From NCBI GenBank assembly GCA_951799445.1, contig OX637289.1, positions 10,259,321 through 10,323,320 of the forward strand: a stretch of DNA of 64,000 nucleotides. The letters run 5' to 3'. Below are positions 3,251 to 61,984 of the stretch, in pieces. The position numbers were made by a program, and so were the translations under genes. A model generated the notes under the pieces. The model ran no database searches. It worked only from the letters and a program-made list of their open reading frames with translations, and was not told the origin of the DNA. How positions within the stretch are numbered: the stretch's first letter is position 1; every line of letters begins with the position of its first letter. The stretch is from Pseudisothecium myosuroides (lineage: Eukaryota; Streptophyta; Bryopsida; Hypnales; Lembophyllaceae).

Positions 3251-3482
3251 TTAACCCTTAAAAATTGAGGTGGACATTTTGCACCTGATAAATGACAAGA
3301 AAATCTCCTGGGTAGGACAGAAGTGCAATTATTCATCCTCAGAATTTTGTGTAAGAAAGGAAAGATCATGAATAGTAGTTTGACCTTGAGTGAGCACTTT
3401 TGATTTTTTTAAAGAAGGTGATGTCATCTGATGCCAAAAGGGATGATTTCCATGGTCACCAGCTCGGCGTTTAAGAATTAAA
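3251..3482. mobile_element. Degenerate TTAA-type element (230-bp subfamily)
   Basis: It starts TTAACCCTTAAAAATTG. It shares its internal order with the elements at 29410-29641 and 55315-55542: AATGACA(A/G)..., ACAACTATTCATC-like, TAGTTTGAC, TTCCAATGA-like/GAGTGAGCACTTTTGA, GGGATGATTTCCA(T/C)GGTCACC. The right end (CGGCGTTTAAGAATTAA) has decayed from the intact GTCCTTACAGGGTTAA end. It is non-coding. Confidence 0.55.
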
Positions 3483-6745: not shown

Positions 6746-7725
6746 TTAACCCCAAAGTGACAAAGAGGACAGAAAGTGTCCTCACAGAGTTTCACGTCCA
6801 ATTCAAAGTGCTGTAACTTTTGCATTCAAGGTCCAAATTCAATAAGACTTGTTGGGAAAGTTGCGTTCTCCCTTCTAGTTTGCATGGTAAAATTTTCAGA
6901 TCAATCCAAGATGTATTGATTTTTTGGAAGCCAATTGAAGTTCACAACTTCAATTTGAGTTCACCAAACTGCATTTTAGGGCTGCAACTTCGGGGCCTTG
7001 TATCTCCTTCATCCATTGCTCATTTTCAATAAAATGTGTTGTATTTTGTTTCCCTTGAAGTATACTTACTGTGGTAAAGTTTTCATGTCAATCCAAGTTG
7101 TTTTGAATGTTTGGGAGCAATTCGAAGTTCAAAATCCTGCCATTTTTGGAGTGTAGTGAACTTTGGCGGCTTGTTTCTTCTTCATACAGAGTCCATTTTC
7201 AATAATTCTTTTTGGAAAAGTTGCGCATACTAGTCTAGTTTTTGTGGCTAAAATTTCATGTTAATCCAAGAATTAATGAGTGACTGAGAAGCATTCTAGT
7301 AGAAGGAGGTTCAGCTTTAGATGTGTTTTTTGCAATTTTTCTTGCTGATTTTTGACATTTCAAAGCCGTTTTGTAGACACAATGATTCAATTGAATGAAT
7401 GTTTTTTTCACCAATGTGTTTGTATACTAGTTTTGAATCTTATTGTAGTGTAAAGTTTTTTCATTTGAGTAGGTTTAGAAATCAAACTTCACCTCCAAAT
7501 GTGTTTTTGGGAAAATTTCAGCATTCATTTTCAACACTAAAACATTATGATCTTGCAATCTATTTGGCCAAATCACTTCAAATTTTGTACATATCATCTA
7601 CAACATGTACACTACAAGATTGTACGGTTGAGATTTGTATAACTTGAATACATTTAGATCCATAAAGCTTCAGAGCAGTGATGTTTTTGAACACCAAAGA
7701 TTGAATGTCACGGCTTTGGGGTTAA
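6746..7725. mobile_element. piggyBac-like (TTAA) non-autonomous element, 980 bp
   Basis: The left end reads TTAA-CCCCAAAGTGACAAAG and the right end is the inverse, ...CGGCTTTGGGG-TTAA. Both flanks carry TTAA and the termini start CCCC, the arrangement typical of piggyBac elements. The interior includes three diverged repeats of about 180 bp. The small ORFs inside have no recognisable transposase. It lies just upstream of the B12D-like gene, whose transcribed region probably begins shortly after 7725. Confidence 0.6.
6838..7270 (+). repeat. Diverged ~180-bp direct repeats
   Basis: Three blocks begin at 6838, 7025 and 7198. Each starts TTCAATAA and runs to a shared segment of the form GGTAAA(A)TTTTCA(G/T)(A/G)TCAATCCAAG. 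The period is 173-187 bp and the copies are strongly diverged. They lie inside the TTAA element at 6746-7725. Confidence 0.6.
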
Positions 7726-13367: not shown

Positions 13368-14979
13368 ATGGACGTCGCGGCGGGCCAAACACAGTTCGCG
13401 ATAGATTTATATAAGGCTGTGGTGACGGGCGTAGGGACCGAAAATGCGATCCTGGGGCCTTTGAGTATCAGCCTGGCATTGGCGATGTTGGCGGCGGGGG
13501 CAAAAGGGCCGACTCTGTCGCAGATTGCCAAGAGCATCCAGCTTCCCGAAGGTGCGCCTATGCACAAATCCTCTTCGCACCTCCTCACCAGTGTGCTTGC
13601 CGATGGGAGCCGCGCCGGAGGTCCGCAATTGGCACTTGCCAACGGTGTCTGGATCGAGCAATCTCTGAAGCTGAATCCCCAGTTTCAGCAGGTTCTTAAG
13701 GATAGCTATGGATCGGAAGCCGCATCGGTGGACTTCGTTTCTAAGGTACCAAATAAGTTGATCTCGTCGATGTCACCCACTGTTTTGATTAACACATTGG
13801 ATTCCCCTGAAGCGGTTATGCATTATTGTTTCCTCCTGCTTAGGAATATATGTATCCACTTTTTTGGCTTTGAGTTCTCAAGTTGCGGAAGGCTCTCATG
13901 CAAATGCGCTATTTTTGTCCTTGTTATTCTCGACCAGGATTTTCCATTTTGTGCATATGGTAGACACATTCAGTCCTCTTGCTAAGAGAAGGTGTGCGGA
14001 TTAAGCAGATTAAGCATGTGCAGATTACAATTCTAATTGCCTTTTGCCGTTAAATGCTACCCTGCAAGAACTGCATATAGTAGATCCGTCATTTTGTAAT
14101 GAAATTTGTACCCATTTTTAGGCTGTGATGAACCAGCTTCTTGCATTAGGAGCTGAAATGGACTAGGAAACTGAAATGGTTATTTGTTTGTAGGCGGAGG
14201 AAGTGTTGGCGAAAGTAAACGCATGGGCCAAGGAAGAGACACATGGGAAAATTGAAGACCTACTTCCTCCAGGTTCCGTGGATCAAGGCACCCGTTTAGT
14301 GCTAGCAAATGCGCTCTATTTCAAGGGAAAATGGAAGAAGCCCTTCGATAGCTACTCCACCCGTGAGGAGGATTTCTTCTTGCTGGATGGGAAAACCATC
14401 AAAGTGCCCATGATGCACACATCCGAAGAGCAGTATGTGAAAGAGTTCTCCACCTTCAAAGCCCTTCGTCTTCCCTACGAGTCCGGCAGCGACAAACGCT
14501 TGTTTTCCATGTTCATTCTGTTGCCTCACGAGAAGAACGGGCTTGCAGACTTGGAGAAAGCTCTGGACTTGAAGACGTTGACTGAAGACCTCAAGCATGT
14601 CAATAAAGCAGTCTCCTTGACGAAGTTTCAGCTGCCGAAGTTCAAGGTCTCCTGTGGGTTTGAGGTGCCGCAGGCATTGAAGGCCCTCGGCTTGACCTTG
14701 CCGTTTGGAGACAAGGCAGATCTGACAGGTATGGTGGATTCGCCCGAGGTCGGCAAAAACCTCTACGTCTCCAATGTGTATCATAAAACGTTTGTTGAAG
14801 TGAACGAGGTCGGTACAGAGGCAGCTGCAGCCACAGCCATCACCGTTCAATTGAAGAGTCTCATGATGTCTACTGACCCTGTGGAGTTTGTCTGCGACCA
14901 TCCCTTTTTGTTCGTTCTCAAGGAAGAAGTTGCAAACGTGATTCTCTTCACCGGCCGGATCACCGATCCTTCTGCTTAA
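13368..14979 (+). CDS. Plant serpin (serine/cysteine protease inhibitor), 387 aa
   Basis: Exons 13368-13745 and 14194-14979 join in phase 0 (AAG|GTACC...TTTGTAG|GCG) to give 387 residues, the usual serpin length. Typical blocks are present: N-terminal helix with NAILGPLSISLALAMLAAGA, LANALYFKGKWKKPFD in the core sheet, the breach region TFVEVNEVGTEAAAATA (hinge, Ala-rich), and the C-terminal HPFLFVLKEE and ILFTGRITDP. The reactive-centre loop runs about 333-352. Aligned with the plant LR-x loop, the scissile bond falls at Lys347-Ser348, so an inhibitor of a Lys/Arg-specific protease is predicted; Arabidopsis serpin1 with Arg at P1 inhibits papain-like RD21 and metacaspases. There is no signal peptide, so it is probably cytosolic. 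The intact hinge indicates an inhibitory serpin. The exon 1 reading frame runs on into the intron before stopping, so unspliced messages would give a truncated product. Confidence 0.92.
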
Positions 14980-15963: not shown

Positions 15964-18900
15964 TCAAAAATCATTTGTCCTCTTCCGCAACTCATTCAAT
16001 TCCCTTTCAATCTCCGAGTCCTGGAACGGATAAGGAGTATTGCTACTACGTGCCACTGGTTGTGTGCGGCCTTCCGGAAGCTCTCCTTTTCTCTGCACAA
16101 GTAGCCGATCTTTGTTAGAGGGACAAGAGTAGTAGAGAGGACACAGCGTTCTATAGGGTATTGAAGACCTCGGCGTATTTATAAAAATCAAAGGTCAATG
16201 AGATCAAACCCCAAGTAGACCGCTTTCTCGTAAATAGTTGTATTAGATACTAAGCAACAGGCCTTGAGATGAGAAACTCTTTAGTGTCCTGGGTTTCCTG
16301 CTCCAGGTCCTCTGCAGTACAAACTAGTCTGCACTCTTGTTTGAGACACTAGTCCCTAAGGGCATATTTTGCAGAGGACATGGAGATATTAATAAACATT
16401 CATACAGAAAACATTGAAAAGTGAGACGCCAATTTAATTAATAATAAGGGAGAAAGATGAACCTTTGAAGTGCCCAATACGTCTTGCTTCAATGATGCCA
16501 GATCGTCATCAACAGAGTCAGTTTCTAAAAGTGCAAACTGCAGACACAATCATTCAAACTCCTGTTAGAGATGCAAGCCTGATTTAACAAACCACGTAAA
16601 CTTGTAACGTTAAAACAGGAGGTTGACAACTTCTACAACTTTCTGTAGAAGTTAATTTCAATTCATCAAAAAGTTCATCAGCGAGGGTCAAAATGACGTA
16701 AAGGAAATACAATACCTTGCTAGCTAGATCATCAGTACTGAGTTGAGTAAGTGCTTCAGATTGCGCCTCCAATGAATTAACTGCAGGGCAAGTATTACTT
16801 TAGTAGCGACATATTTTGCATATTTCAACCAACGTTACAAGATTTCTCCCAAGATGCCCTCAATATATTGCGTCCACTAAAGCAGTAATTAAACTAATAG
16901 AAGTACCATTCCCTCGATCTGTTCTAGAAAACCTAGCCGTGTTATGATTGGTAAGGTTGATGTTCGAAACTGCCTTAAATGGCAGCACAGTAGGGAGGAT
17001 TAAAGCAGCTAGGATATCTAGCAGTGGGGTGGGTGTGGTGGGGATCTACTGATTGTAATCCGCAACTTAGATCACTACTGAAAGCGTCATCAACTCTAGC
17101 CGATGCGTTCAGAATAGAGCGGTTTTGAGTCATTGTTAATCCTACTACTCGTTCAGACACAGCCAAAACTATCTGAAGCAGCAATGTATTGGGTTCAAAA
17201 GAGCACCACAACAGCAATCTACCTTTCTCTTCCATCTTCTCAAATGCTGCGAGAGCACCACTGGAATTGATACCACCCAAGAGCTCATTGACCTTCTGTG
17301 AAGTCCTGTAGCATTCCCAACACCCTCTCATTGGTTAAGTGCCTCTCACCCTCTTACTTTCCTTTCAACCTGTTACAGTGCTCAGCACAATCTTAAACCC
17401 AGAGTATGTACCCTGGTGGCAGAGTGTGCAGCTACTTTCAATTGGTGGTATGCTTGGAGTAGTCTTAACTAGACCCTAAAACCATGAACGGCACCTTTCA
17501 CTGGTGAATTAAGCATTCTAGAATGATTTTCTGGTTACCACAAGAGCCTGGGTTTAAGAAGATGCCATGACACTAAGAAGAAATATATCCATGTTCAAGA
17601 CTGAGCTATGAAAAGTGGTATGTACCAAGCAATTGGAAAGATCATCACATAACAACTTAATACTGGAGATAGAAAACCAAAACATACTTTGCAGATTGTG
17701 CTCTTGCTTTCAATGTGTCCTTCTTTGACTTGGCTTCTTGGATCTTGCTCTCAAGCAGCTGCGTGCAAATGCAATAATATTAACCAATAAAAACCACTAC
17801 TTGGAATAAATGCGGTAATTGATTCGATTCTAAACTGGTGATTAACCCCCGAGAGCCCAAATGGCCAAAAGTGGCCACTTCCATATCTATAGGAGTAGAA
17901 ATGAACCACTTAGAAAACTTCCAAGGTAACAAGGTAACAAGATGTGCCGATAGAAAGAAGAAATCGCACCCTACATTTCTGAACAAAAGATATATTATAT
18001 ATATATATAATGAAAGTTACTATAATCGACTATTATCTTCCGAAGTGGAATATCTATTTCCATGTCCGGCACTCAGAGGATAAAATCATTAATAACAGCT
18101 AAAGCAACCGTCCTGTAAGCGAGGGTGAGAATCACTATACCCGAGTGTTGGATATTAGCTTCTCTACCACACCCTTCTGTTGATCCAGCTGGCTTTTCAA
18201 CGCCTTTGCACTTTCCTGTGCAGAAAATGCATCCAGAGCACTGTGAGTGACATGCAGGGTAACACTTAACCTCACGGACAATCATTGTAAATTCTCAACT
18301 CCTCAAGCATGACTTAAGGATGACTTAAGAATTGTTTTCTCCTCAAGCATGACTTAAGAGTTGTTTTCTTCTCAAGCATGACTTAAGAGTTGTTTTCTCC
18401 TCAAGCATGTCAAAATAGACTTGATGAAAAGAAAGTACAAAAAAGAGTCGAATTTGATACCTCGTAATCCTTACGACGTTTTAGAGCCTCTCTAGCCAAA
18501 ACCTCATCGCCTTTTTCCAGAGCCAGCTTGGCTCTCCTGTACCAATCATCGGCCGCTGTTTGGGATGCTTTGTACTTGTTCTCCAGCTGCTTTTGTGACG
18601 CTAGTACCTTCACCCAACCAGGCCAAAGCAAATTAACCTTACGGCCTAATCCAAATAGGATGGCAGTAACAAACTACACAACAAGAGAAAGCTTGTGCAG
18701 TGACATATTTAAATCTGGATGAATTCCAAGACTAGAAAAACATACATTAGAGACCCATTTGCAAGGGTCTCTTTCCTGCGGGTTGAAAAGTCACCCATTC
18801 ACAATGAAATTTATCATCCAAACTCGTGAATTAGATGTAATAAGATGCTTCTACATTCTATCCCAGTCAAAGGTGCTTCCATGAAATGCAATACTCACGG

Positions 18901-26023: not shown

Positions 26024-26400
26024 TTAACCCCTACAGTCTCAAGGCCTTTTTTTCATCAAATTTCACTCAAAACTGCCAGAAAGCAAAAAATTTAGAAATT
26101 GTTATTTTTGTATTTCTAACTATAGGATCTTGTACTAGACTAGCAAAAGAATTTGTCAAAGAAATTTCAAAAACTTTGACCATGTGGAGTGTAAGATATT
26201 TGGGTTTGAAGTGAGAAAAATGGGTTTTTTGCTCCTTGCCTAAAAATCTAGAAATTGTTTTTTTTTTGTATATCTAACCATAGGATCTTGTACTAGACTA
26301 GCATAAGAATGTGGCAAAGAAATTTCAATAATTTTGACCATGTACATTGTAAGATATTTGTGTTTGAAGTGAAGAAAACTGGGTTTTATGCTCCTTGCCT
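26024..26400. mobile_element. TTAA-type element fragment with internal 165-bp duplication
   Basis: It starts TTAACCCCTACAGTCTCAAG. The segment at about 26083-26234 is repeated at about 26248-26400, both with TAGGATCTTGTACTAGACTAGCA, TTGACCATGT, GTAAGATATTTG and GCTCCTTGCCT. The same sequence occurs in reverse orientation inside the element at 51300-52236 and, truncated, at 45076-45213. The right terminus was not found. Confidence 0.6.
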
Positions 26401-27143
26401 TAGAACTAGATTTTAAGGCTGTGAATCTTCTTGGCTTAAATTTTTTTTTTTTATTAATATTGAATTAAAAAATTAATGTTGAAAAATTGAGTTAAAGGCC
26501 AAGAAATAAAAATAAAAAATAAAAACATTTGATTTTCATTCTTAAAAAAAAACTTTAAGTAGAAGTGAGTATGAGATTGAAGGGAAAACTAAATCAATAA
26601 TAGGTCTATGATGGAATTGAAACACGATAATTCCAACAATGAGATTGTTCTAGTATACAATCTAAACCTTGTCAAACTTCTTTTTTTAAATTGTGAAAAT
26701 TGTGTTAAAAAAATGAATCCTGTAAGTTATTTTTTCAAGAAGATGCTTAGATTGCCTAAAAAGCAAGATTGTCTATAGCTTTTTCATCACTAGTCCAAAT
26801 AGAATGAATCAAATCTTTTCATGTAAACAAAAATACTTTCTATGAGAAAAAAATTTACTTTTATCTTGACATTTTGTGATTTTTGTGCTACCTAACAATC
26901 CTTGTTTTAGACTTAGGGTGGTATAACTTTTGCTATTGGGCACCAATTCAAATAAAAATTGTATTTCTAGAAACTTAAGGTAGTTTTTAATCTTCAAAAA
27001 AAGTTTCAAAAAATCATGACAAAAATTGAGATTGTAGAAGCCTATCCAAAATTCATTTTGTCCCTCGCGGGGATAATGGGACTTTAGGAATTAAGAGCTG
27101 GAAATTAATTTGGAGAGGATAGAGTGACTTTTTGAAAAAAAAA

Positions 27144-29409: not shown

Positions 29410-29641
29410 TTAATCTTTAAACGTCGACGAGGATGTTTTTGTACAATAGATGACAGAGAATCCTTCTAACAAGACAAAAATACAACTATTCATCTTTATA
29501 ATTTTGTTGTGAAAAGGAGAGATCTTCTATAATAGTTTGACTTCCAATGAATGCTTTTCCACTTTTTTGAAGGCAATGATTTTGACGATATCCAAAGGGA
29601 TGATTTCCACGGTCACCACTCACCAGTCCTTCCAGGGTTAA
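29410..29641. mobile_element. TTAA-type element, 230-bp subfamily
   Basis: The right end TCCTTCCAGGG-TTAA is intact and the left end (TTAA-TCTTTAAACG) is decayed. The interior matches 55315-55542: ACAACTATTCATC, TAGTTTGACTTCCAATGA, GATGATTTCCA(C/G)GGTCACC. It lies about 380 bp upstream of the ELOF1 start codon, so it borders that gene's promoter. Confidence 0.6.
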
Positions 29642-45075: not shown

Positions 45076-45213
45076 TTAACCCCTCAAGACCCAAGGCCTT
45101 TACTTCATCAAAAAAATTCTCAAAATTGTCATTTCTATTGCAAAGAGCAAGAAACTTTTTTTTTTTTTTAATTTGCATATCTAGTTGGAGGATCTTGTAC
45201 TAGACTAGTAGGG
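45076..45213. mobile_element. Truncated TTAA-type element
   Basis: Starts TTAACCCCTCAAGACCCAAG and runs through CAAGGCCTTTACTTCATC to GGATCTTGTACTAGACTAG, matching the first ~150 bases of the element at 26024. The similarity stops after 45213 and no right end is present. Confidence 0.6.
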
Positions 45214-50392: not shown

Positions 50393-51299
50393 AATCACGA
50401 TGGTTGTGAAGAAGGTTGTTCCATTTGTGAATATGAAGGTTAGACCCTCTTGCGCCTCTGGAAGTGTTAGTCAATCAACTAGCAGTTACTGATACTGCAC
50501 ACAGTCTGTTTGAAAGTGGGCACTCTGGTAGTGAATCCCCAAGTCTTCCTTGAAGAAGCAGATGGGCTAAAGGTGTTAGCAGCTACTTGCTAGATGTTAT
50601 GTTCAACTCTTTGATGGACAAGGAGCAGCATTGTGTTATTCAATTATTTCATTTCTTCCCATTGCACTTGGCAAGCGACGACCTGGGCGCAATCTTCTTG
50701 AGAATAACCTTGAACTATTGCTTCTGTGAGATGATTTCAGATGTAAAAAAATAATCGAGAATTTCCCCATTGTGCAGGAAACTCACTGCACCTTTGACCT
50801 TTGAACTTGAGTTTACACAGAATCAACCCAAAACAAACAGTACCACAAACCTTCCCATTTTAATCTCTCCTCCGTTGTCATTGTATCAGTAGTGTTAGTA
50901 GGATGATGTGAGGCGTACCTGTCTGCTTACCTGTCTGCTTACCTTTGCCACAGCCAGACCCATCTAGACAGATAGAATACAAGTACTCGACAGTATTGGT
51001 GTATCTATTTCCGATGTTGTACACCACTATATTGTTCTACATCATGGTGCAAACCAAGTTTTCGTGTATTTCTCTAATTAGAAAACCAGTAACGGCATGG
51101 TTATAAGCTCAAAGTTTGAATTGCAATAGATATTCAATTTTTTTGTATCTTCTTATTGGAGTAGAAAGTATACTTGATAAACTTCATTTCAATAGTTGGA
51201 CTCTTAGTTAGATTGAAATTCAAAAAAGACAAATATGTGGCTAAATTTCAAATCAAGAGCAAGGAGCTAAAATTGCTCAAATGCAAGGTGATGTGAGAA
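50393..51299. other. Hydrolase 3' region and a truncated repeat copy
   Basis: The first ~450 bases are probably 3' UTR and flank. About 51010-51280 (ATCATGGTG, TAATTAGAAAA, CAAAGTTTGAATTGCAATA, TTGGAGTAGAAA, AGAGCAAGGAGC) is a diverged copy of the interior of the elements at 59445 and 61252. No gene is seen. Confidence 0.5.
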
Positions 51300-52236
51300 T
51301 TAACCCCTAAAGGACCGTTGTTCCTTTGGGGGACAAATGGCATTTCGGGCAGGTACCTACGGGCTGAAATTTTTTCCTGATTTTTTGAAACTTTTTTGGA
51401 GGTAGAAAAGCTGATCAGCTTTGTGGGAATATTATTTTTTTCACAATCGGTGCCCGGGAAAAAAAGTTATGACCAAATAAGCTCAAACGAGGGGACAGTG
51501 GGCAGCCCGGGCAGCCAAAAAAAAATGGACAAAATTTGAATTTTTTTTTAATATTTTTTTTCTCATAGATTATATTTTTGTCTATTTGGAAAGCTTTGAT
51601 TCATTTCATTTGGATTTGTTATGAGAAAGTTATGGACATTCTTGTTTTTTGGGCAATTAGAGCATCTTTTTGAAAAAAATAACTTGTAGGATTCATTTCT
51701 GAATGCAATTTTTCAAATTTTTCAAATTCTTTTTTTTTGCATGGTCTGATTTACTTGTTAGAACAATCACACCATTGGGATTAGTGCATTTTAATTCCAT
51801 CTAAAATATATTAATGTTTTAGATTTTCCTTCTATCTCATACCTACTTCTTCTTAACAATTTTTTTAAGAATGATAATTAAGTTTTTTTGAATTTCTTTT
51901 TTTTCCCTAGACTCTCAACTCAATTCTCCACTCTAAAGATTTAAAGCTCAAAACTCTGTAGTGCAAAAATTTTAAGTTAAAAATGTTCAAAGTCAAAATC
52001 TAGTCCAGCAATGTGTTGAAAAATTTGTTTTTTCTACTTTAAATGCAGATATCTTGCAATCTGTGCGGTCAAAAAATTTGAAATTTTTTCCACACACTCT
52101 TATACTAGTTAGGTGTAAGATCCTACGGTTAGATGTGGGGAAAAAACAATTTTCAATTTTTTTTACTCTTTGCTATAGATATGGCACTTTTGAGTGTTTT
52201 TTGGCAGAAAAAAGGCTTTGGTCCTTTAGGGGTTAA
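51300..52236. mobile_element. piggyBac-like (TTAA) element, 937 bp
   Basis: Ends TTAA-CCCCTAAAGGACC and the exact inverse GGTCCTTTAGGGG-TTAA (13-bp perfect TIR plus TTAA on both sides). Inside, at about 52040-52180, is a reverse-orientation copy of the 26024-type sequence. Small ORFs, no transposase. Confidence 0.7.
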
Positions 52237-52486
52237 GTTTCTTCTTTTGTTTAAAAATCAATTATTTGACAATGAAGGAATTTCCAACACTATTGCAAAT
52301 GCCTTCAAAGCAACATCCAAAAAAAATTGGATAAAAAATTGTCTTTTTCATCTTAGGAAGCTCCTTGAAATAATTCATTGGATCCTAAATTAGACGGGCA
52401 TTATTCTAAGATTAATACCCCAAGGAACAAGAAGGGGGTATGTTGCTCAATGTTACATATACCAGACCCTTCTCAAGTATTGAAGC

Positions 52487-53077
52487 TTAACCCCTAAATG
52501 CCCAAGGCACCCAAATGTGGTGTTGAAGAAACTTTGAAGTTAAATAAAACCTTACCAAATTGCTATTTTGAGTAGTTTATATTTTTGAAGTCTAGTTTTA
52601 GCATCAAAAATCTGGATTTTGAAAATGAATGATTATGATTTTTCTATTCAAGATTTTGTACAAAGGTACCTATTGCAATCTTGACTTCTCGTAGTGGAGA
52701 AAAAATCACACTAGAAATTCATTTAAAAAAAATGTAGAGTAGATTTTGAGAAGGCATAAATTGATTGAGGTTATATTTGTTAGGGCCTTCAACCTCATAT
52801 TTTTTAGGTCTTGAATTTTTTTAGATTTGACATACAAAAAGAGAGCTCAAAGATTTTCATAGTTTTAACACCCTCATGATCAAACATTATAATCTTTCAA
52901 TCCTTAATTAATATTGTTGTGTTTTCTTTTCTTATATGATCTCTAACATGTCTAGTTTGAATTTGTACGGTTACAATTCAAAAAAAATTGATTCAACTTA
53001 TCAAATGTTGTCTTTTTTGTTCAATTTAGAGCAAATTTCAAGAGGCTCAAAACAGGCCTTGGGCATTAAGGGGTTAA
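52487..53077. mobile_element. piggyBac-like (TTAA) element, 591 bp
   Basis: Ends TTAA-CCCCTAAATGCCCAAGGC and the inverse GCCTTGGGCATTAAGGGG-TTAA, an 18-bp TIR with one mismatch. The ORF at 52936-53172 runs out of the element and has no recognisable homology. Confidence 0.7.
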
Positions 53078-53160
53078 AACAATGGCATCCGTACAAGCAA
53101 AAAACAACATGCCATAATTTTACATCTATATTTGACAAGCTTTTGTCTTTTTCTCCACCC

Positions 53161-53462
53161 TTAACCCCTTAAGGACAAGGAGTAGTTCAAATTTCCAAAA
53201 TTGTAAAAATATATAATAAAATGCATCTTAGAATAATAATTTGATAACAATTGCTAATCAATAGTTGTAAAATATGATCCATAGATCATATTCGCATATA
53301 TTTAGATCAACTACTATACTAACCAATATTTTTTAATTAAATTTGAAGCAAAAAATTGGAAAATATTAAAGAACAAACACAAGAATGCATTTCTGTATAT
53401 TTGGGATGTATTTGTATTCATTTGTTGTTCAAAATTTGAACATTTTGTCCTTAAGAGGTTAA
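53161..53462. mobile_element. piggyBac-like (TTAA) element, 302 bp
   Basis: Ends TTAA-CCCCTTAAGGACAA and the inverse TTGTCCTTAAGAGG-TTAA (one mismatch in 14), with further inverted similarity inward (GTTCAAATTT). A short, clean non-autonomous copy. Confidence 0.7.
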
Positions 53463-53649
53463 CCTCCAATGACCCAAGGAAAGTCAGTGCTTTCAAAATA
53501 GGCAAAAACTACCAAAAACTTGAACAATTTGTTTGCTCATTTTTCTTGAGATCAGATTGAATATAATTTTAAGATCTTGAATTTCACATTTGGAATAAGC
53601 ACCTCAAAAAATTTCAAATTATCATTAGAGGAGATTTGGGCTTCTAAGA

Positions 53650-53900
53650 GCCCGCGAGTTCCCGGACTGTGGGAACTCTGTAGGACTGCTGAAACGTTGC
53701 CGCATGGCCAGTCCGACGTGGTCAAGCGACTGCCACGTCATTTTTTTTAATTTTTTAATTTTTGAAAAAAAAAATAGTATTCTTTAAACATTTTAAGAAC
53801 TTTTTTTTTTTTAATTTTTTTTTTCTGACAGCAGGGGCTGGTTCCCAGCATTGAGAACAGCCCTGAAACGGTCTTCCAGAATCCCAGATCTCCTCTAATG
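53650..53900. repeat. Dispersed repeat shared with 45838-46040
   Basis: Both copies contain GAGTT(C)(C/T)C(C)GGACTGTGG(G/A)AACT, a GC-richer block ending GACGTGG...ACGACTGCCAC(G/A)TCA, then a long A/T run and TTCTGAC(A/C)GCAG. Copy two of the block lies inside the TAAGG-type element at 45762-46322. Boundaries are not defined. Confidence 0.6.
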
Positions 53901-55314
53901 TTGGCTGCACAGTTTTGTAGACACTTGAGTTGAAGTTTATTTGGGTCAATGGAAAAACAGGGCAATGCACTTTGAAGGAGCATATCACAGTGAGAATATT
54001 TCAAAATGATGACCTTTTGTGCTCAGTGAAAGACAAGAGAGTTGAAAATGCTCATCTAACATTTCATAGCATTATGAACATTTTCCAATTCATAGTAGAG
54101 CTTACAATGCATAGTGGTCACTAAAATGAGATTAGTGTTTGTAAGAAAAATAAGATTGGGACACTTGCTCCTCCTTGAGCTCCTTGGATATGCCCATTTT
54201 GAGGTAGATCTAACCTTTTTGAGATGAACAACAATTAAAGTGGTTGTCTCACTTTTTAGTCCATGCCCAAACCAAATCCAAAAAAAATGAGTTGTGAACT
54301 ACACTATCGACTACTCAACTTTAAAAAATTCCACAAGGTAGAGTTTAACTCAAACTTTGATGAAACTACCGCCATTGGATTCATAGCACAGTCTAGTTTC
54401 TAGAAATCATTTTTATTTTTAAGAAATTCAAAATTTGAGAACAAGAAGCTCATAAAAGAGGGGCAACAACCAAAAAATGGTCACTTGGATTATTAGGGGC
54501 TTAACAACAAATGTATCCATTAAACAATCATTTGTCTAATTACAAGTAGAATGTAGGAAAAAGCCTTTTCAACTCAGATTGGCAGAAATAATCTTGACAT
54601 AGTAGGATACAATTTTTGGAAAATATTTGGAGGTTCCCAAAGCATTTTTTGTCCACTTTGGCTGTGTATCAATTTTTTGCATGCAAAGGTGCAAGTGCCC
54701 TTCATCTTGTTGTTGTTTTTTCCCTTCTTGATCCCAGTGTTTCTATCTATAAGTTTCTTTGGTGTTTGCATAAAGAAGATTATACTCTTAGTTACTTAGT
54801 TTATTACAATTTGTTGGGTAAGATTTTCCACCACAATGCCTAGCATATCAAACTACATGTATACTTTAGGAATCATGAATAAGGTAGAACAATCCAATGC
54901 TGTCAGTCACCCAGTTCCGGCATCTACTAAACCCTCCCATTTGCATCAACCATCCACCCATTACCACAATCTTAGCAACCCTTTAGCACCATGACAATGC
55001 ACTTGGGGATTGGACATATCACCGTCACCGTGTAGTCTAGCATGGGTCTACCTAGTCATGCCTTACCAATTTCGTCCCAACAAACATTGAAAAATCACAA
55101 AAAAATCCATTTTTTGTTGGAATGTCTTGATTCAACTTGACAATGGCTTAACTCCACCTTCTCAATCTCTGGAGAATACATGAGTTGACAAATAGCTTCT
55201 CCCAAGGTAGATAACTAGACAGCTAATCTGCTTGGTAATAGGCATGTTAACCTTATTATTGCTCATCTCATCTCATCTCATCATCCAGTGCCCTGCCCAT
55301 CTCTCTCGAGAGCT

Positions 55315-55542
55315 TTAACCCAGTAAGGACGCCGCGGACCATAAGTGTCCGATGAATGACAAAAGATTCTCCAATGTAGGACAGAACTACAACTATTCAT
55401 CCTTGGAGTTTTTTGTGGAAAGTGGAGAACATTTACAGTAGCTTGACTTCCAATGAGTACTTTTGAATTTTTTTATTCCAATGACTCTCACGGTTATACA
55501 ATGCATGATTTCCAGGGTCACCCCCGCGTCCTTACAGGGTTA
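55315..55542. mobile_element. piggyBac-like (TTAA) element, 228 bp, intact ends
   Basis: Ends TTAA-CCCAGTAAGGACGC and the inverse GCGTCCTTACAGGG-TTAA, a 14-bp TIR with one mismatch. It is the best copy of the 230-bp subfamily (also 3251-3482 and 29410-29641). Confidence 0.75.
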
Positions 55543-56527
55543 AGAAGAAAATGCAGTGCTTATGGGTTTCCTAGTATCATGGTGCCATGATAGTCCTTCC
55601 ACTGCGTGCTTGGGCTCCCTCTCTCTTCCTGCTTGCAGAGCTGGTTGTGATGTTATGATGGCCACTCTCAGGTGCTCGCAGTGAGTCTGGAATGGCTGTT
55701 CCCTGACCAGTTGAATGTTGCTTGCAGCACAGTTGGCATTTGCAGGTCATTGAATTGCAACCAACTTACCAGAGAAATTCAGTGAGGCAACCACACCCAA
55801 AAAACTTCCAACTCAGCATCGGAGCAGAGTCCCTAGTTTTGGTTCAAGTCTTGTTGGCTATTGAAAGAGGATTCCAACACTTCTTGACGTGTATTTTGAG
55901 GACACTCTCAATAAATAAACTATGAATTTTCAAGGAGTGTGGAGAGTACATACAAATGTATCTTATGAAATCAATCTTTGGCTCTTACAGCCGTTTGAAA
56001 GTGTATATTTTGGCAAGACTAAGTAACTGGGGTCACAACTAGATGTGGTTCCCTTATTTAATTGCATGCAAATATTCCATTATCATTCTCAGCTCACTCA
56101 CTCTTCCTTTGCGTGATTTGGTCAATCCCTGGCTTCTAACTTAAGTGGTGAAGGGCTTTTTTAGGTTGCATTGGTTCCTAAGAATGCATTGAAAAAACAA
56201 AACTCTAAACTCTAAACTGGTCCTTTTTGAAAGCTTACTACTGAGGATTCTAGCACAAGCAAATTTTGGTTTGACTGTAATTAAACTTGTCATAGATAAG
56301 TTGAACTTGACAACAGAATCTTCATTTCGTTTTTGATGGACCATTGTGTGACATGAATGTCATGTTGGAGTATTGATTTCAGAAACCCGCTTTTGTTGCA
56401 CACGGTTTTCCAGCTAGTCAGCAACTGAAGAGCAGCATAAGTTGCTGCAGGGGGAGAGACAACAAAAATAGGAACTTACTCAAAGAATCCACTGAAGAGA
56501 ATGAAACTCACTACTAAAAATCATATA

Positions 56528-56806
56528 CAAGGTAGCTACACCCAAATGTGCCACTGATCTTAGACCACCATCTTTATCCTGTGTACATCTTCAAAATCAA
56601 TTTCTGTACCTATGTGGAAGATACCATTTTAGAACCAAACTTTGTTCCTTAATAACTTTTGCATATAGTATCCAAATGCCATGTTCTCTGGTGTGTTGGA
56701 ACCTCCTTTCACTTGCCAATAAGAACATATGAAAATCTGACCAGTCTAATAATAGTAACTAGACACAGCAGCAAGAAGTGGTGGTTTTGGGTGCACCCAC
56801 AGTAGG
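56528..56806. mobile_element. TAAGG-type element, copy A
   Basis: About 280 bp, colinear with 57578-57850 (shared AGAACCAAACTTTGTTCCTT, AACTTTTGCATATAGTATCC and TTGGAACCTCC). Its ends (CAAGGTAGCTACACCCAAAT and GTTTTGGGTGCACCCACAGT) are partly decayed. Confidence 0.6.
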
Positions 56807-57577
56807 CTATAATTCAAGTTTGATTATGTTGGACTGTTTTTTGGTTTCCTACTTACTAACTTAGTCATGGTTTGTTTTTTCAAGTTCAAATCTGTACACA
56901 TGAATGCAGTCAGTCCAGCAAGACTGAATGATGTATTGGGTGCACTTTGACAGCTGAATTCCAGTTTCAGCAACTCAAGTGCTTCATGGAGATTTGCACT
57001 GAAGCCCTATGGAGATCATCACAAACTTGATGTGCATCTTTCAGTTGCTGTGGTACCCAAATTACGACGACAACCGCCAGTCAGTGTTAAGCTTACCCCC
57101 GGATTTCAGCGTTCCAGGTCAACTGTACATGAAACTCACGGGGCACTAGGTGGAGACAAGGACTCAACTTGGCCATCAAGGACATGAAGTTATTAACCTT
57201 TGGAAAGACCAAGAAGCCATCACTTGGAAGAGGTTTTGAGTTCAACCTCATTACTTAGGTGGGTTTTTCGAACATTTCAAAAACTATAATTTCTTTTAAC
57301 CAACACATGCACGCAATGCCCATCAGTCAATCTAGTGCTATACTATGAACATCACAATCCCATGGCATTGTACTTTTGTGCAATATGATCCATGGAAGTG
57401 ATCATTTTAAAACTTCGAATTTTTGGTTTTCTTGGGATAAAATGCAATTATGATACATTGCAACTGAGAGCTAATTTACTGGTAGAAATATCCAAGGCTT
57501 ACAAAATGCCAGCCTAAATATGCAACTCAAAATTGGACTTTGGAGCTGCTGTAAAGGAACCCTGATCTTGAGGTACG

Positions 57578-57850
57578 TAAGGTAGGCATCCCAAATGCGC
57601 CACTGACCTTAAAGCGCCATCTTCAGTGTGTACATCTCCAAAATCAGTTATATACCTCTGTGAAAGAAACGCTTTTAGAACCAAACTTTGTTCCTTCATA
57701 ACTTTTGCATATAGTATCCAAATGTCGCGTTCTTTGGTGCGTTGGAACCTCCATTCCCTTGCCAATAAGAATATATAAGAATTTGTACAATCTAATAGTA
57801 GTAATTAGGCACAGTAGCAATTAGTGGCGGTTTTAGGATACCTACCTTAT
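57578..57850. mobile_element. TAAGG-type element, copy B
   Basis: Ends TAAGGTAGGCATCCCAAATG and the inverse TTTTAGGATACCTACCTTA. Colinear with copy A about 1 kb upstream, roughly 80% similar by eye. The 83-codon minus-strand ORF inside is not thought to be a gene. Confidence 0.65.
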
Positions 57851-59444
57851 AGACTTTGAAGGATGAAGGAAATGAAGTTAAGTTAGTTTAGGACTCTGTA
57901 TGATTGAGTGCAAGGATACCAATGTATTTGCACAAAAACATCACACTGAATAGTGAAATTAGGTTGCCCATCACTAATTTCTCAACATTTGACAGTATGT
58001 AAATATTTACAATCAATGTATAAAAATGATGCACTACTCCGAATTAGGTGTTGTTGTAATTGGATACTCATAAACTACCACGTGTACAAATGGAAATATT
58101 TGTAGAAGTATTTGTTGAATTTGATGGCTTATAAAATAACTTTCGTAGGGTAAGACGGCAAACTAATTGTTAAGGCAATCTAATTTTCACTGTTCTGTGT
58201 AGAGCATATATTGTTTTTGATATTTTATTTTATTTTTGTGTGCAAAATGAACAAGACATTATATTGCAGAGCATGCAATAGAAAATCCTAGTGACGTATG
58301 AGCTCCCAGAATCTTCTTTTATTATAATTCATCCAAAATTGATTGGTTCTACAGGAAGAAGAGAGAGTATAGAAGTGAAAGTAAGCAATTTTGACCTCAC
58401 ATTGCAGAGATATTCACTTCTAAAGTTCACCTAAGTAAAGTGTCAAATATTTATAACATGGTCACCTCTAGATTAGAAACAAGCATACATATTCAAGAGA
58501 ATGCTATCTTTTGTAGGTGCGCCTTAGTTTATAGGGTTTGTGATTGGCCATGGAATTTCCAAGGCCTAGGCAACCTTAAAATAGGGGAAAGGTGTTGCAC
58601 TACGTTCCTGCGCAGGGCTGCACCCACAACAACATCCCTCTCCTCAATGGAAGACAATGACAATGAGCATCCAAATGGTAAATATACATAATCATGACAT
58701 ATGTTCAATAATTCACCTCCCAATTATCTCCTTTACTCACCATCCATGCTCGTATAAGTTTTCAATCTTTAGACGATGTGGAAGATATATACACATGCCT
58801 TATCAAGTTATCAACATACCAAAATGGTTATTTAATAAGGTTGAATAATTGGCCAATATGGAAGTTAGTATGACCAATCTAAAAACGCCACCCTTGCACA
58901 CATACAACAAATGCTACGACGCCACCACTACAACCGATGTTGGGTAGTACGTCCTCGTGATAAATAGTTTAGACCATACTAAATAACCATTTCAGTGTTA
59001 AGCTTAGTAGTGTCAGAATTAGCAACTGTTTAAATTATGAGACTCATAAGGTAGAAGCACCAATTGTCAACCACGCCCAGCACTCAACTTGCAAGGGTGC
59101 AGTACGTATTTCCAACCCAAGGTTGGAACAAATTAAAGGGAAGCTAGGAATGTGTTTTTTTGGTCCTTTTCAAAGTTGGGACTAATAAGGTTATGACACA
59201 TGTCTCAAAGTAGCGAGCAAGAAAGTAAGAAGTAATGAGCAGGAAAGTAGTTCTTGAATGATCGGAATTGGAAGACTCTAGAAAGTGGCTACTAGTGAAA
59301 TGCACTTTTGGGTTCCCAAAATTCACTGTAAATTCAATTTTGGAAGAAAATTTTTGAAAACTTTGTAATCCCCATATTTCCTATCTTCCTACATGGGAAA
59401 AAATTCCACCACCTCTTACTGCGCACAATCTGCTCCAAAATTGC

Positions 59445-60201
59445 TTAACCCCTAAATGACGGACCCGTGACCATTGATTTCAAACCTCACTGCCCATCAC
59501 TCAATTTGCTACCATTTTGCGACTCAATATGAATGAAAAAATTTATAAAAAAATTTATATTTATTTTTCAGAGATGAAAGTAAATGTCTTCTTTACTTCA
59601 CAAAAAAATTAGATTTTTTTGTGGAAAATTAATTTTTTGAAGATTTTTTGAAGAAAAAGTGAAGAAAAATCATATTAAATAGAAAATTATTTCAAAAAAT
59701 CTGAAAATTCCACCATGTGTGTATATTACAATGACAAACATCATGGTGTAAACTCAATTTCCGTTGCATTCTATAATTAGAAAATAATAGACATTGAAAA
59801 TACACCCAAAGTTCAAATTGCAATAAAATATGCAATATTAGAAATTTTTTCAAAATTCAAATTGGAGTAGAAACTAGAATAGATGACCTTCATTTTGTTA
59901 GTTGAACTCAAACTCAAAAAATATCATTTTTGTGGAGAAATTTCAGATTTAGAGCAAGGAGCAACAACTTCTTAAAATACTCTAAAATAGCATATTTTTT
60001 GATCCGTTTTTTTTAATAACTTCTCATTTTTGTGAAGACAAACATTGGAAAGAGTACAAACTCAATTGGATACTCTTCATAACCCAATATGAAAAGTCAA
60101 CAAGGAAAACAAGGATGAAAAAATGCTTTTGAACTTTTATTAGCTCAACAGTATTGTCATTGGAACGCCACGGAATGGCGTCGGCGGCGTTCCAGGGTTA
60201 A
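59445..60201. mobile_element. piggyBac-like (TTAA) element, 757 bp
   Basis: Starts TTAA-CCCCTAAATGACGGAC and ends GGCGTTCCAGGG-TTAA. The right end contains a GC-rich hairpin (GGAACGCC...GGCGTTCC). It is homologous along its length to 61252-61984 in the same orientation. Beyond CCC(C)T the two termini are not strongly inverted, so the TTAA flanks and shared family structure are the main evidence. Confidence 0.65.
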
Positions 60202-60482
60202 AAGGTCGACTACTAGTGCTTTTACCTTATGTTTCTTCATCGTTTTCTCTTGCAACCCATGGTAAGTCAGTTGCTACCGCATTTATTACACAGGTTTGTG
60301 TTTTCAGATGCCACACAACATAAATAACTGATCTCAGATTAATGACACATCTCAGGTTGAGGAGCTGGTCCAGTGTCAGCAGGTAGTTTGTGGTTCATAA
60401 AGAGGATGATGACCTGATCAAAGCAGTCTCTTTAATGACTATGAGCTCCCACCAACTTATAAGGGGCTCTACAATATATGTG

Positions 60483-61254
60483 TAAGGTAGAGGTACCTAT
60501 TTCAAATAATTTAAACATTTCAGCCTGTAGGATATGGGAAATTGGTTGACAAATTGAGCTCAATGCGTGCAAACATACAGACGAGGAAGAATGCAAAAAA
60601 TCAAGAATTATTTTTTCCAAGAATGAATACTCTATTCAATATGAATGTGGATTTTTCATCTGGACCAGTCTTATAGACTTACAGCATCACCATGGCTACT
60701 CACCGAAGGCACTCAACACAGGCAATGGGTGGGCTGTGGCTTAGAAATTGCCCTACGGCACGCACGCCAAGGGCAAAAATATGTCCGGTCACTTCCAAAA
60801 ATGAAGAAGGCACAGGCAAGTAGAAACTCTTGAACGCGGCTCATCGGGCTATTTAATAATGGTTTGAATCCCACCTTTTGAAAGCTTGTTTTCAAAAGTC
60901 AAGGAGATTCTTTTTAAAATAATAAATAAATAAATATGGTGCACCTTTTGACCACTTGACGAGCCTTCCCATGGGGCTGTGACTCTTCAATCAAAATGAC
61001 GGCACACCAACCAACAACAATTCCTTGTTTGGCGCCCTAGTTCTATGCTGTAGCTGTAGGGATGCTCTTACGGTCTTACCTGTTACAATTAGCTTTGGCA
61101 CTTCTCCCTAAGCCAAGAAGGAAAAGAAACAAGTGGACAAGAAGGTACAAACATAAAATCTTTTTCAATGGATATTGCATCCAATTGTTGTCCACAATAG
61201 GTCACCTATAAAGCCATTAGAAGGGGGCTATCTGAAATAGGTACCTCTCCCTTA
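60483..61254. mobile_element. TAAGG-type TIR element, 772 bp
   Basis: The left end TAAGGTAGAGGTACCTATTT (then CAAATA) pairs with the right end AAATAGGTACCTCTCCCTTA with one mismatch over about 20 bases. Its right end overlaps the TTAA of the next element by three bases. No transposase ORF. Confidence 0.7.
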
Positions 61255-61984
61255 ACCCCTAAATGACAAACTTATGACCATTGATTTCAAGCCTCACTAC
61301 CTGCCACTCATTTAGCTGCCATTTTGCAATTAGATATGTATGAAAAAATTTATATTGTTATTTTTCAAAGATGAAATTACATGTCTTCTTTACTTCACAA
61401 AAAAAATAGATTTTTTTGTGGAAAATTGTTATTTTTGAGAATTTTTGAAGAAAAAGTGAAGAAAATCACATCAAATAGAAAATTATTTCACAAAATCTGA
61501 AATTTTTCACCATGTGTGTATATTACAATGACAAGCATCATGGTGTAAATTCAATTTCCGCGTCATTCTATAATTAGAAAATAATAGACATTGAAAATAC
61601 ATCCAAAGTTCAAATTGCAATAGAATAGTCAATATTAGGATTTTTTTCAAATTTCAAGTTGGAGTAGAAACTAGAGTAGATGACCTTCATTTTGATAGTT
61701 GGGCTCAAATTCAAAGAATATCATTTTTGTGGAGAAATTTCAGATTAGAGCGAGGAGCAATAGCTTTCCAAAATACACTAAAATATCATATTCTATGATC
61801 CATTTTTTTTAACTAACTTCTCATTTATGTGAAGACAAACAAACTCAATTGAATATTCTTTATAAATCACCATGAAAGGTCAATAAAGAAAAATATGGAT
61901 GAAAAAAAGCTTTTGAGCTCTTTCCATTTCACAATGTTGTCATTGGAATGCCACAGAATGGCGCCCACGGTGCTCTAGGGTTAA
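61252..61984. mobile_element. piggyBac-like (TTAA) element, 733 bp
   Basis: Starts TTAA-CCCCTAAATGACAAAC and ends GGTGCTCTAGGG-TTAA. It is a direct-orientation relative of 59445-60201 (shared CATTGATTTCAA, TCATGGTGTAAA, TAATTAGAAAATAATAGACA and GGAGTAGAAACTAGA). Confidence 0.65.

What the first reader, a model, noticed from the sequence alone, without database searches (positions are those of the whole stretch)
51300..61984. A piggyBac-like, TTAA-flanked MITE family in a plant genome
Eight elements in the window (6746, 29410, 51300, 52487, 53161, 55315, 59445, 61252), plus decayed ones at 3251, 26024 and 45076, start TTAA-CCC or a decayed form of it. The complete ones end GGG-TTAA. Four have clean TIRs of 13-18 bp (51300, 52487, 53161, 55315). 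TTAA target duplication with CCC termini is the established piggyBac signature, and piggyBac elements are seldom reported in land plants. Several size classes (about 230, 300, 590, 750 and 950 bp) suggest a long-lived mobilising source elsewhere in the genome.
Basis: partly seen in the sequence, partly recalled or inferred. Interest (0 to 1): 0.75.

Follow-up and report, generated by a model that had tools for sequence, protein, structure and literature searches.

The report
Moss piggyBac transposons and their MITEs
Short mobile DNA pieces in this moss genome are passive passengers of piggyBac jumping genes, a kind best known from animals, and the same genome holds many full-length piggyBac copies, some identical to one another, that carry an extra gene of unknown kind.

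Summary
The window (388-Mb assembly; a moss, judged by one serpin gene) carries eight TTAA-CCC...GGG-TTAA elements, two with one decayed end, plus decayed ones, far above shuffled controls. The genome holds piggyBac (DDE_Tnp_1_7) transposases: 116 of 116 scored candidates pass Pfam's cut-off. In 18 of 20 fetched loci the transposase lies in a 5.0-6.6 kb element with such ends; a matrix made from partner ends finds 16 ends in the window against 0.33 expected. Two nested insertions into copies of the window's 51300 family show the empty site with one TTAA. So these are piggyBac MITEs, with partners present. Beyond the finding: six copies of one 5632-bp family sit at different sites (three read in full, 0-1 differences), so it moved very recently; 18 of 20 loci carry a conserved upstream ORF1 block of no known family. 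The moss transposases form a clade with unnamed sequences; two protein searches listed no named plant. Mobilisation in trans and ORF1's role are inferred.

The parts
51300..52236 (+). piggyBac MITE, 937 bp, TIR TTAACCCCTAAAGGACC
   Evidence: 43 matches listed, 40 candidates scored of 8852 at first look, the other 39 full-length ones 92-95% identical; first 97 bp 77% to L015 and last 220 bp 75% to L016, both with transposase
51791..51794 (.). TTAA inside the 51300 element: empty site of the nested insertion in L029 (another copy of the family)
52487..53077 (+). piggyBac MITE, 591 bp, 22-base TIR incl. TTAA, 95% matched
   Evidence: TIR 14 of 16 to ends of L013/L015/L016
53161..53462 (+). piggyBac MITE, 302 bp, ends TTAACCCCTTAAGGACAAGG / TTAACCTCTTAAGGACAAAA
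55315..55543 (+). piggyBac MITE, 229 bp, 23-base TIR 87% matched
   Evidence: genome-wide copies not counted (search did not complete)
59445..60201 (+). piggyBac MITE, 757 bp; lies inside a TAAGGTAG-type inverted-repeat element
   Evidence: 44 matches listed, 40 candidates scored of 3357 at first look, others 86-94% identical
61252..61984 (+). piggyBac MITE, 733 bp, 83% identical to 59445-60201
6746..7725 (+). piggyBac MITE, 980 bp; first 38 bp 82% identical to the left ends of L026-L028; right end below the matrix threshold
29410..29641 (+). piggyBac MITE relative of 55315, left end decayed
26024..27094 (-). decayed relative of 51300 (68%), with an internal tandem duplication
3251..3481 (+). 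decayed relative of 55315
45076..45154 (-). single end resembling the right end of 51300
51039..51281 (+). decayed relative of 59445, interrupted by 51300
17842..18083 (+). candidate decayed element (17.9 and 10.3 bits for its two ends; at 10 bits five base-shuffled windows gave 2-10 sites each, so the right end is weak)

Best explanation
The elements are non-autonomous piggyBac elements (MITEs). A piggyBac transposase made by 5-6.6 kb partner elements elsewhere in the same moss genome recognises their TTAA-flanked CCC(C) ends, cuts them out and joins them into another TTAA, which ends up on both sides of the new copy. Shown: the pairs of ends, no transposase among the window's ORFs of 75 aa or more, transposases enclosed by such ends, single-TTAA empty sites for two nested insertions, shared subterminal sequence between 51300 and partners L015/L016, very recent movement of two partner families. 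Inferred: mobilisation in trans, and the cut-hairpin-join chemistry, from the known piggyBac mechanism (recalled). The partners carry a second conserved ORF (ORF1) upstream of the transposase; that it helps transposition (for instance by binding DNA or steering the complex) is a guess.
For: Ends in excess of chance. 116 of 116 scored candidates (899 at first look) for PF13843 pass the cut-off; the same search over the tool's 14 control genomes, not named in the answer, gave 0. 18 of 20 fetched transposase loci have TTAA-CCC ends on both sides, picked by me from the motif lists. Matrix from 26 ends of 13 partner elements: 16 window ends at 15 bits or more against mean 0.33, max 2, in 100 dinucleotide shuffles. 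The 16 bases after TTAA at the right end of 51300 equal L015's left TIR; 97 bp of its left end are 77% identical to L015. Nested copy in L029: host pieces 1-495 and 492-937, overlap TTAA; the window's own 51300 element is the empty site, flanks 39 and 38 of 40 identical. L025, a 5585-bp partner, sits in a 51300-family copy; four of four close empty copies (90-95%), the window's among them, have one TTAA. Transposase core matches solved piggyBat (8e-34) and piggyBac (9.5e-22); four aspartates invariant in 14 of 14 aligned moss sequences. L026, L027, L028: 5632 bp, 0-1 differences, different flanks; three further copies with identical 100-base ends and TTAA on both sides.
Against: Only 51300/26024 shows long subterminal similarity to a fetched partner; for 52487, 53161 and 55315 the matches are 20-36 bases with E 0.014 to 0.76, 55315 weakest. 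For 6746 and 29410 only one end matches a partner end at 12 of 16; the other reaches 9 and 10. By sequence alone a TTAA duplication cannot be told from a TA duplication at a preferred TTAA; the transposase family decides it. Of 19 comparisons spanning a junction, one (L026) is not an empty site; of the other 18, 9 read TTAA. The 9 that do not are: TAAA and ATAA (two 68-69% copies for L025), TAAA (1 of 4 for L024), TGAA, TCAA, TTGA (3 of 3 for L010, 73-75%), TTTG and TTTT (2 of 2 for L011, 78-82%), TCAA (1 of 2 for window 51300 against L017, 66-67%). Five further joined flanks found no spanning match in the sequence held, and the window alone gave none.
Confidence: 0.96

Rival explanations
1. 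The MITEs belong to Kolobok, another superfamily with TTAA duplications.
For: Kolobok makes TTAA duplications too (PMC9587614, passages).
Against: That paper gives Kolobok termini as 5'-RR...YY-3'; here they are 5'-CCC. The enclosed transposases are DDE_Tnp_1_7. The genome was not searched for Kolobok transposases.
Confidence: 0.01
2. They belong to PIF/Harbinger (TTA/TAA) or Sola3 and only happen to end in TTAA.
For: TTA/TAA is part of TTAA; Sola3 is recalled to use TTAA (no call shows it).
Against: Both sides read TTAA as a direct repeat, the close empty copies of two nested insertions have one TTAA, and the partners with the same ends are piggyBac. The genome was not searched for Harbinger or Sola3 transposases.
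Confidence: 0.01
3. The MITEs are fossils of another extinct TTAA family whose ends merely converge on those of the present piggyBac elements.
For: Some window families share little more than the TIR with fetched partners; fetched copies of the 51300 and 59445 families differ by 3-17%, so they are older than the identical partner copies.
Against: 51300 shares long subterminal sequence with L015/L016, and 6746 its first 38 bp with L026-L028; only 20 of at least 116 partners were read.
Confidence: 0.03

Closest known systems
piggyBac-like elements of animals (T. ni piggyBac 6x67, piggyBat 9c0f)
   Same: TTAA duplication, CCC ends, DDE_Tnp_1_7 transposase with conserved aspartates, Cys/His-rich C-terminal tail in 12 of 14 aligned moss sequences by eye
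   Different: 5.0-6.6 kb, long N-terminal extension (L028 frame 1091 aa, DDE at 618-988), a conserved upstream ORF1, a clade apart from the animal sequences
piggyBac MITEs of corals (CMITEs, PMC2872659, passages)
   Same: TTAA duplication, CC[C/T]T-type ends, partner in the same genome sharing TIRs, copies in tandem
   Different: Host is a moss; several unrelated internal sequences; partners include copies that moved very recently
Kolobok (PMC9587614, passages)
   Same: TTAA duplication; some lineages carry accessory proteins
   Different: 5'-RR ends; another transposase

Membership tests
piggyBac superfamily | TTAA target site duplicated on insertion | tested here: met
   Nested insertions in L029 and L025 against close empty copies; over all usable comparisons, diverged ones included, 9 of 18 read TTAA
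piggyBac superfamily | Termini CCC/CCY with short TIR | tested here: met
   yardstick from passages of PMC2872659 and PMC10813416
piggyBac superfamily | DDE_Tnp_1_7 transposase between those ends in a partner element | tested here: met
piggyBac superfamily | C-terminal cysteine-rich zinc finger | tested here: inconclusive
   Cys/His-rich tail seen by eye in 12 of 14 rows of alignment A2, not in L012 and L022 as read; a strict pattern found it in 0 of 14
piggyBac superfamily | Footprint-free excision | not testable with these tools
   needs alleles with and without the element
MITE | Short, with TIRs, repeated, without its own transposase | tested here: met
   (no transposase among 144 ORFs of 75 aa or more in the window); genome-wide repetition tested only for 59445 and 51300
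Kolobok | 5'-RR...YY-3' termini | tested here: not met
PIF/Harbinger (Tourist) | 3-bp TTA/TAA duplication | tested here: not met
   The doubled stretch in L029 and L025 is four bases, TTAA

The most novel reading that the evidence does not exclude
Mosses hold their own deep piggyBac clade with a two-gene design: ORF1, a conserved ~110-aa protein block of no known family, ahead of an overlapping transposase ORF2 with its own start codon; in this species at least one family is still moving and several MITE families ride on it.
Probability: 0.5. Interest if true: 0.75.

Novelty: new variant of a known kind. Interest (0 to 1): 0.62.

Why it matters
Active, diverse piggyBac is known mainly from animals (recalled). 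A moss with at least 116 recognisable transposases, identical or nearly identical full-length copies and MITE families with thousands of first-look candidates (two families counted) gives plants a native piggyBac system to study: how it is held in check, how it shapes genes, and what an accessory ORF adds. It also makes the age and origin of plant piggyBac testable.

Tried and rejected
Rejected: chance; Kolobok, Harbinger and Sola3 as the mobiliser, from ends, duplication and partners only, without a genome search for their transposases (see rivals). Tried without gain: tRNA and Rfam scans of the window (0 hits); window-only empty sites (its one spanning row was a self-match; the script still had a wrong end, 53484, for the 53161 element); five more joined flanks (no spanning match); the 767-bp insert in a 59445-family copy in L012 turned out to have other ends. 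Pfam, NCBIfam and PDB searches for ORF1 gave nothing convincing (best Pfam E 0.022 and best NCBIfam E 0.067, each in 1 of 10 members; PDB 0). A strict zinc-finger pattern found nothing. In one search I used 27093 instead of 27094 as the end of the 26024 element. One search stopped on a script error after two loci and was finished.

Dropped before counts: the end matrix leaves out L021, whose right end is unsure, L014 and L023, whose left ends were not found, and the near-identical L010, L011, L027, L028. Right ends of L016 and L020 each had two candidates 6-7 bases apart; I took the inner one.

Not done: structure prediction of ORF1 or the transposase. Genome-wide copy counts of 55315, 52487, 53161 and 6746 and of the TIR pattern were not obtained.
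Full report
Host. The window lies at C3:10259321-10323320 of a 388-Mb assembly in 222 contigs. The second part of its serpin gene (14194-14976) is 70-74% identical to annotated serpins of the mosses Ceratodon and Physcomitrium and only 53-54% to those of named liverworts; the closest hits, 92% and below, are unnamed. So the host is most likely a moss of another genus; this rests on one gene. Pfam finds ordinary genes and no transposase among 144 stop-to-stop ORFs of 75 aa or more.

Observation. All eight listed starts exist. Exact TTAACCC and GGGTTAA motifs (12 and 8) exceed dinucleotide shuffles (3.5 and 4.0), and convergent pairs at 150-1300 bp number 6 against 0.28; three of the six share 7 or more of the next 13 bases inside, which no pair did in 200 shuffles. 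That count leaves out 53161 and 29410, each with one decayed end. Self-comparison shows several families that share ends but not interiors.

Partner elements. After five unanswered tries, the search of the window's own genome with PF13843 scored 116 candidates of 899; 116 of 116 passed the cut-off, with E down to 1.7e-83; by my count 73 of 116 have no stop within the match. The tool's 14 control genomes, not named in the answer, gave none. I fetched 20 loci of 9.9 kb, chosen mostly among the best-scoring ones with long open frames. In 18 of 20 the transposase is enclosed by TTAA-CCC...GGG-TTAA, 5011-6624 bp apart; the first 16 TIR bases agree at 9 to 15 positions. In L014 and L023 no left end was found with my patterns. 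L026, L027 and L028 are 5632 bp each with 0-1 differences between any two, at different sites; L009, L010 and L011 differ by 1-4 substitutions plus 1-2 gap bases. Ends of three further copies of the first family and two of the second are identical over 99-100 bases and flanked by TTAA.

Link between MITEs and partners. A 20-position matrix from 26 ends of 13 partner elements, none from the window, scores 16 window sites at 15 bits or more; 100 shuffles average 0.33, maximum 2. The right ends of 6746 and 53161 and the left end of 29410 fall below that threshold. The right end of 51300 equals L015's left TIR over 16 bases; its first 97 bp are 77% identical to L015 and its last 220 bp 75% to L016. 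59445 shares 46 bp of its right end with L012 (78%), 6746 its first 38 bp with L026-L028 (82%). For 52487, 53161 and 55315 only 20-36 bases match, at E 0.014-0.76.

Empty sites. In one search a 51300-family copy at C2:4907269-4908210 is flanked by the two parts of another copy, 1-495 and 492-937, so positions 492-495 are doubled. Reading L029 shows that these are TTAA and that the window's own element has one TTAA there, at 51791-51794, with flanks identical at 39 and 38 of 40 bases. The partner L025 sits in another 51300-family copy; four of four close copies, the window's included, have a single TTAA at the same place. L024 gives TTAA in 3 of 4 and L028 in 1 of 1. Over all 18 usable spanning comparisons 9 read TTAA; the other 9, six of them against copies less than 76% identical, do not and are listed under evidence against. 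Copies of the 59445 family abut each other sharing one TTAA in L030.

Transposase. PF13843 covers residues 618-988 of the 1091-aa frame of L028. phmmer finds piggyBat and piggyBac among solved structures (8e-34, 9.5e-22), the profile of 14 moss sequences at 6.7e-56 and 6.9e-52. D234, D313, D426 and D429 are invariant in all 14; that they match the catalytic residues of piggyBac is recalled. Two searches of the protein collection listed 64 and 30 hits; where an organism is named it is an animal or, once, a bacterial MAG, never a plant. Most of the closest hits are unnamed, both searches score only candidates sharing short words, and plant gene sets often mask transposons (recalled), so this is weak evidence of absence. 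In a tree of 84 sequences the 20 moss copies and 14 unnamed ones form one clade with support 1.0, in two main branches (midpoint root).

ORF1. Ten of the elements carry, upstream of the transposase domain, ORFs sharing a ~110-aa block; a profile from these ten finds it 1.7-3.8 kb upstream of the DDE domain in 18 of 20 loci but not in L015 and L016. Eight of the 18 were not in the profile: four near-identical copies (L009, L011, L026, L027) and four independent ones (L012, L014, L020, L023; E 8e-18 to 7e-29). Codon positions 1/2/3 differ 35/18/51, 38/24/56, 32/25/56, 19/15/52 and 32/25/71 in five pairs, as expected of a protein under purifying selection; the sixth and most diverged pair gives 58/45/59 and says little. 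In six elements whose transposase frame is open (L009, L018, L022, L024, L025, L028) the first Met of that frame lies within its first 25 codons, next to the end of the ORF1 block (for L009 read from its near-identical L010); in L009, L022, L025 and L028 it begins a shared MS...K(E/D)(A/S)..R-like stretch. In L010 and L011, near-identical to L009, the frame is broken and shorter. In three of three pairs of L022, L025, L028 this frame is better conserved downstream than ORF1's. Genome-wide, 149 of 150 scored candidates (312 at first look) match the ORF1 block of L028; 47 of the 116 listed transposases have an ORF1 match within 6 kb, 47 of 47 on the same strand and upstream; eight shifted controls gave 0-1. 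The other 102 of 149 ORF1 matches have no listed transposase nearby, which may only reflect that 116 of 899 candidates were listed. No library names it convincingly. Whether ORF1 is a separate protein, an exon or a frameshift partner is open.

Age. Fetched full-length 51300-family copies (5) are 83-95% identical to each other, 59445-family copies (7) 84-97%. The MITE copies read here are thus older than the identical partner copies.

Literature, passages only. Kolobok has TTAA but 5'-RR ends (PMC9587614); piggyBac CC[C/T]T ends (PMC2872659) and CCC-type motifs (PMC10813416); piggyBac-like elements are said to occur in plants (PMC8086355); a fern annotation counts 1230 piggyBac hits (PMC6890710); a survey lists piggyBac among superfamilies found in all groups studied, land plants being one (PMC4438587); a review names piggyBac among MITE superfamilies of angiosperms (PMC10004981). 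In PMC7466625 on expressed Physcomitrium transposons the word piggyBac does not occur. In the listings of searches (25 of 553 papers shown; 25 of 51), 62 and 101 I recognised no paper describing piggyBac in a moss; subscription journals are not held.

Noticed in passing
57578-57849, 59047-60229 (interrupted by 59445-60201), 60483-61254: Another inverted-repeat family with TAAGGTAG...CTACCTTA-like ends; 59445 sits inside one, 61252 at the end of another, and 6746 also starts right after CTACC.
   Followed up: partly
53623-53900: 278-bp inverted-repeat element with arms CATTAGAGGAGATTTGGG..., not of the TTAA-CCC kind.
   Followed up: no
L012:8134-8900: 767-bp insert with ends GGGTAGTTGCAAGAAACACTT... 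inside a 59445-family copy; apparently a different DNA transposon.
   Followed up: partly
L028:2351-2695 and 18 of 20 transposase loci: Conserved ORF1 block upstream of the piggyBac transposase, no known family; two matches lie in open frames of 545 and 710 aa, perhaps fused forms.
   Followed up: partly
26086-26410: Tandem duplication of about 170 bp (88% identical copies) inside the decayed 26024 element.
   Followed up: no
window, among the 144 ORFs (place not looked up): Two ORFs match Mec-17 tubulin acetyltransferase, a gene recalled as tied to cilia and flagella, fitting a plant with swimming sperm.
   Followed up: no
L031:841: Two 59445-family copies meet at GGGTTTAACCCC, one base more than a shared TTAA.
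   Followed up: no
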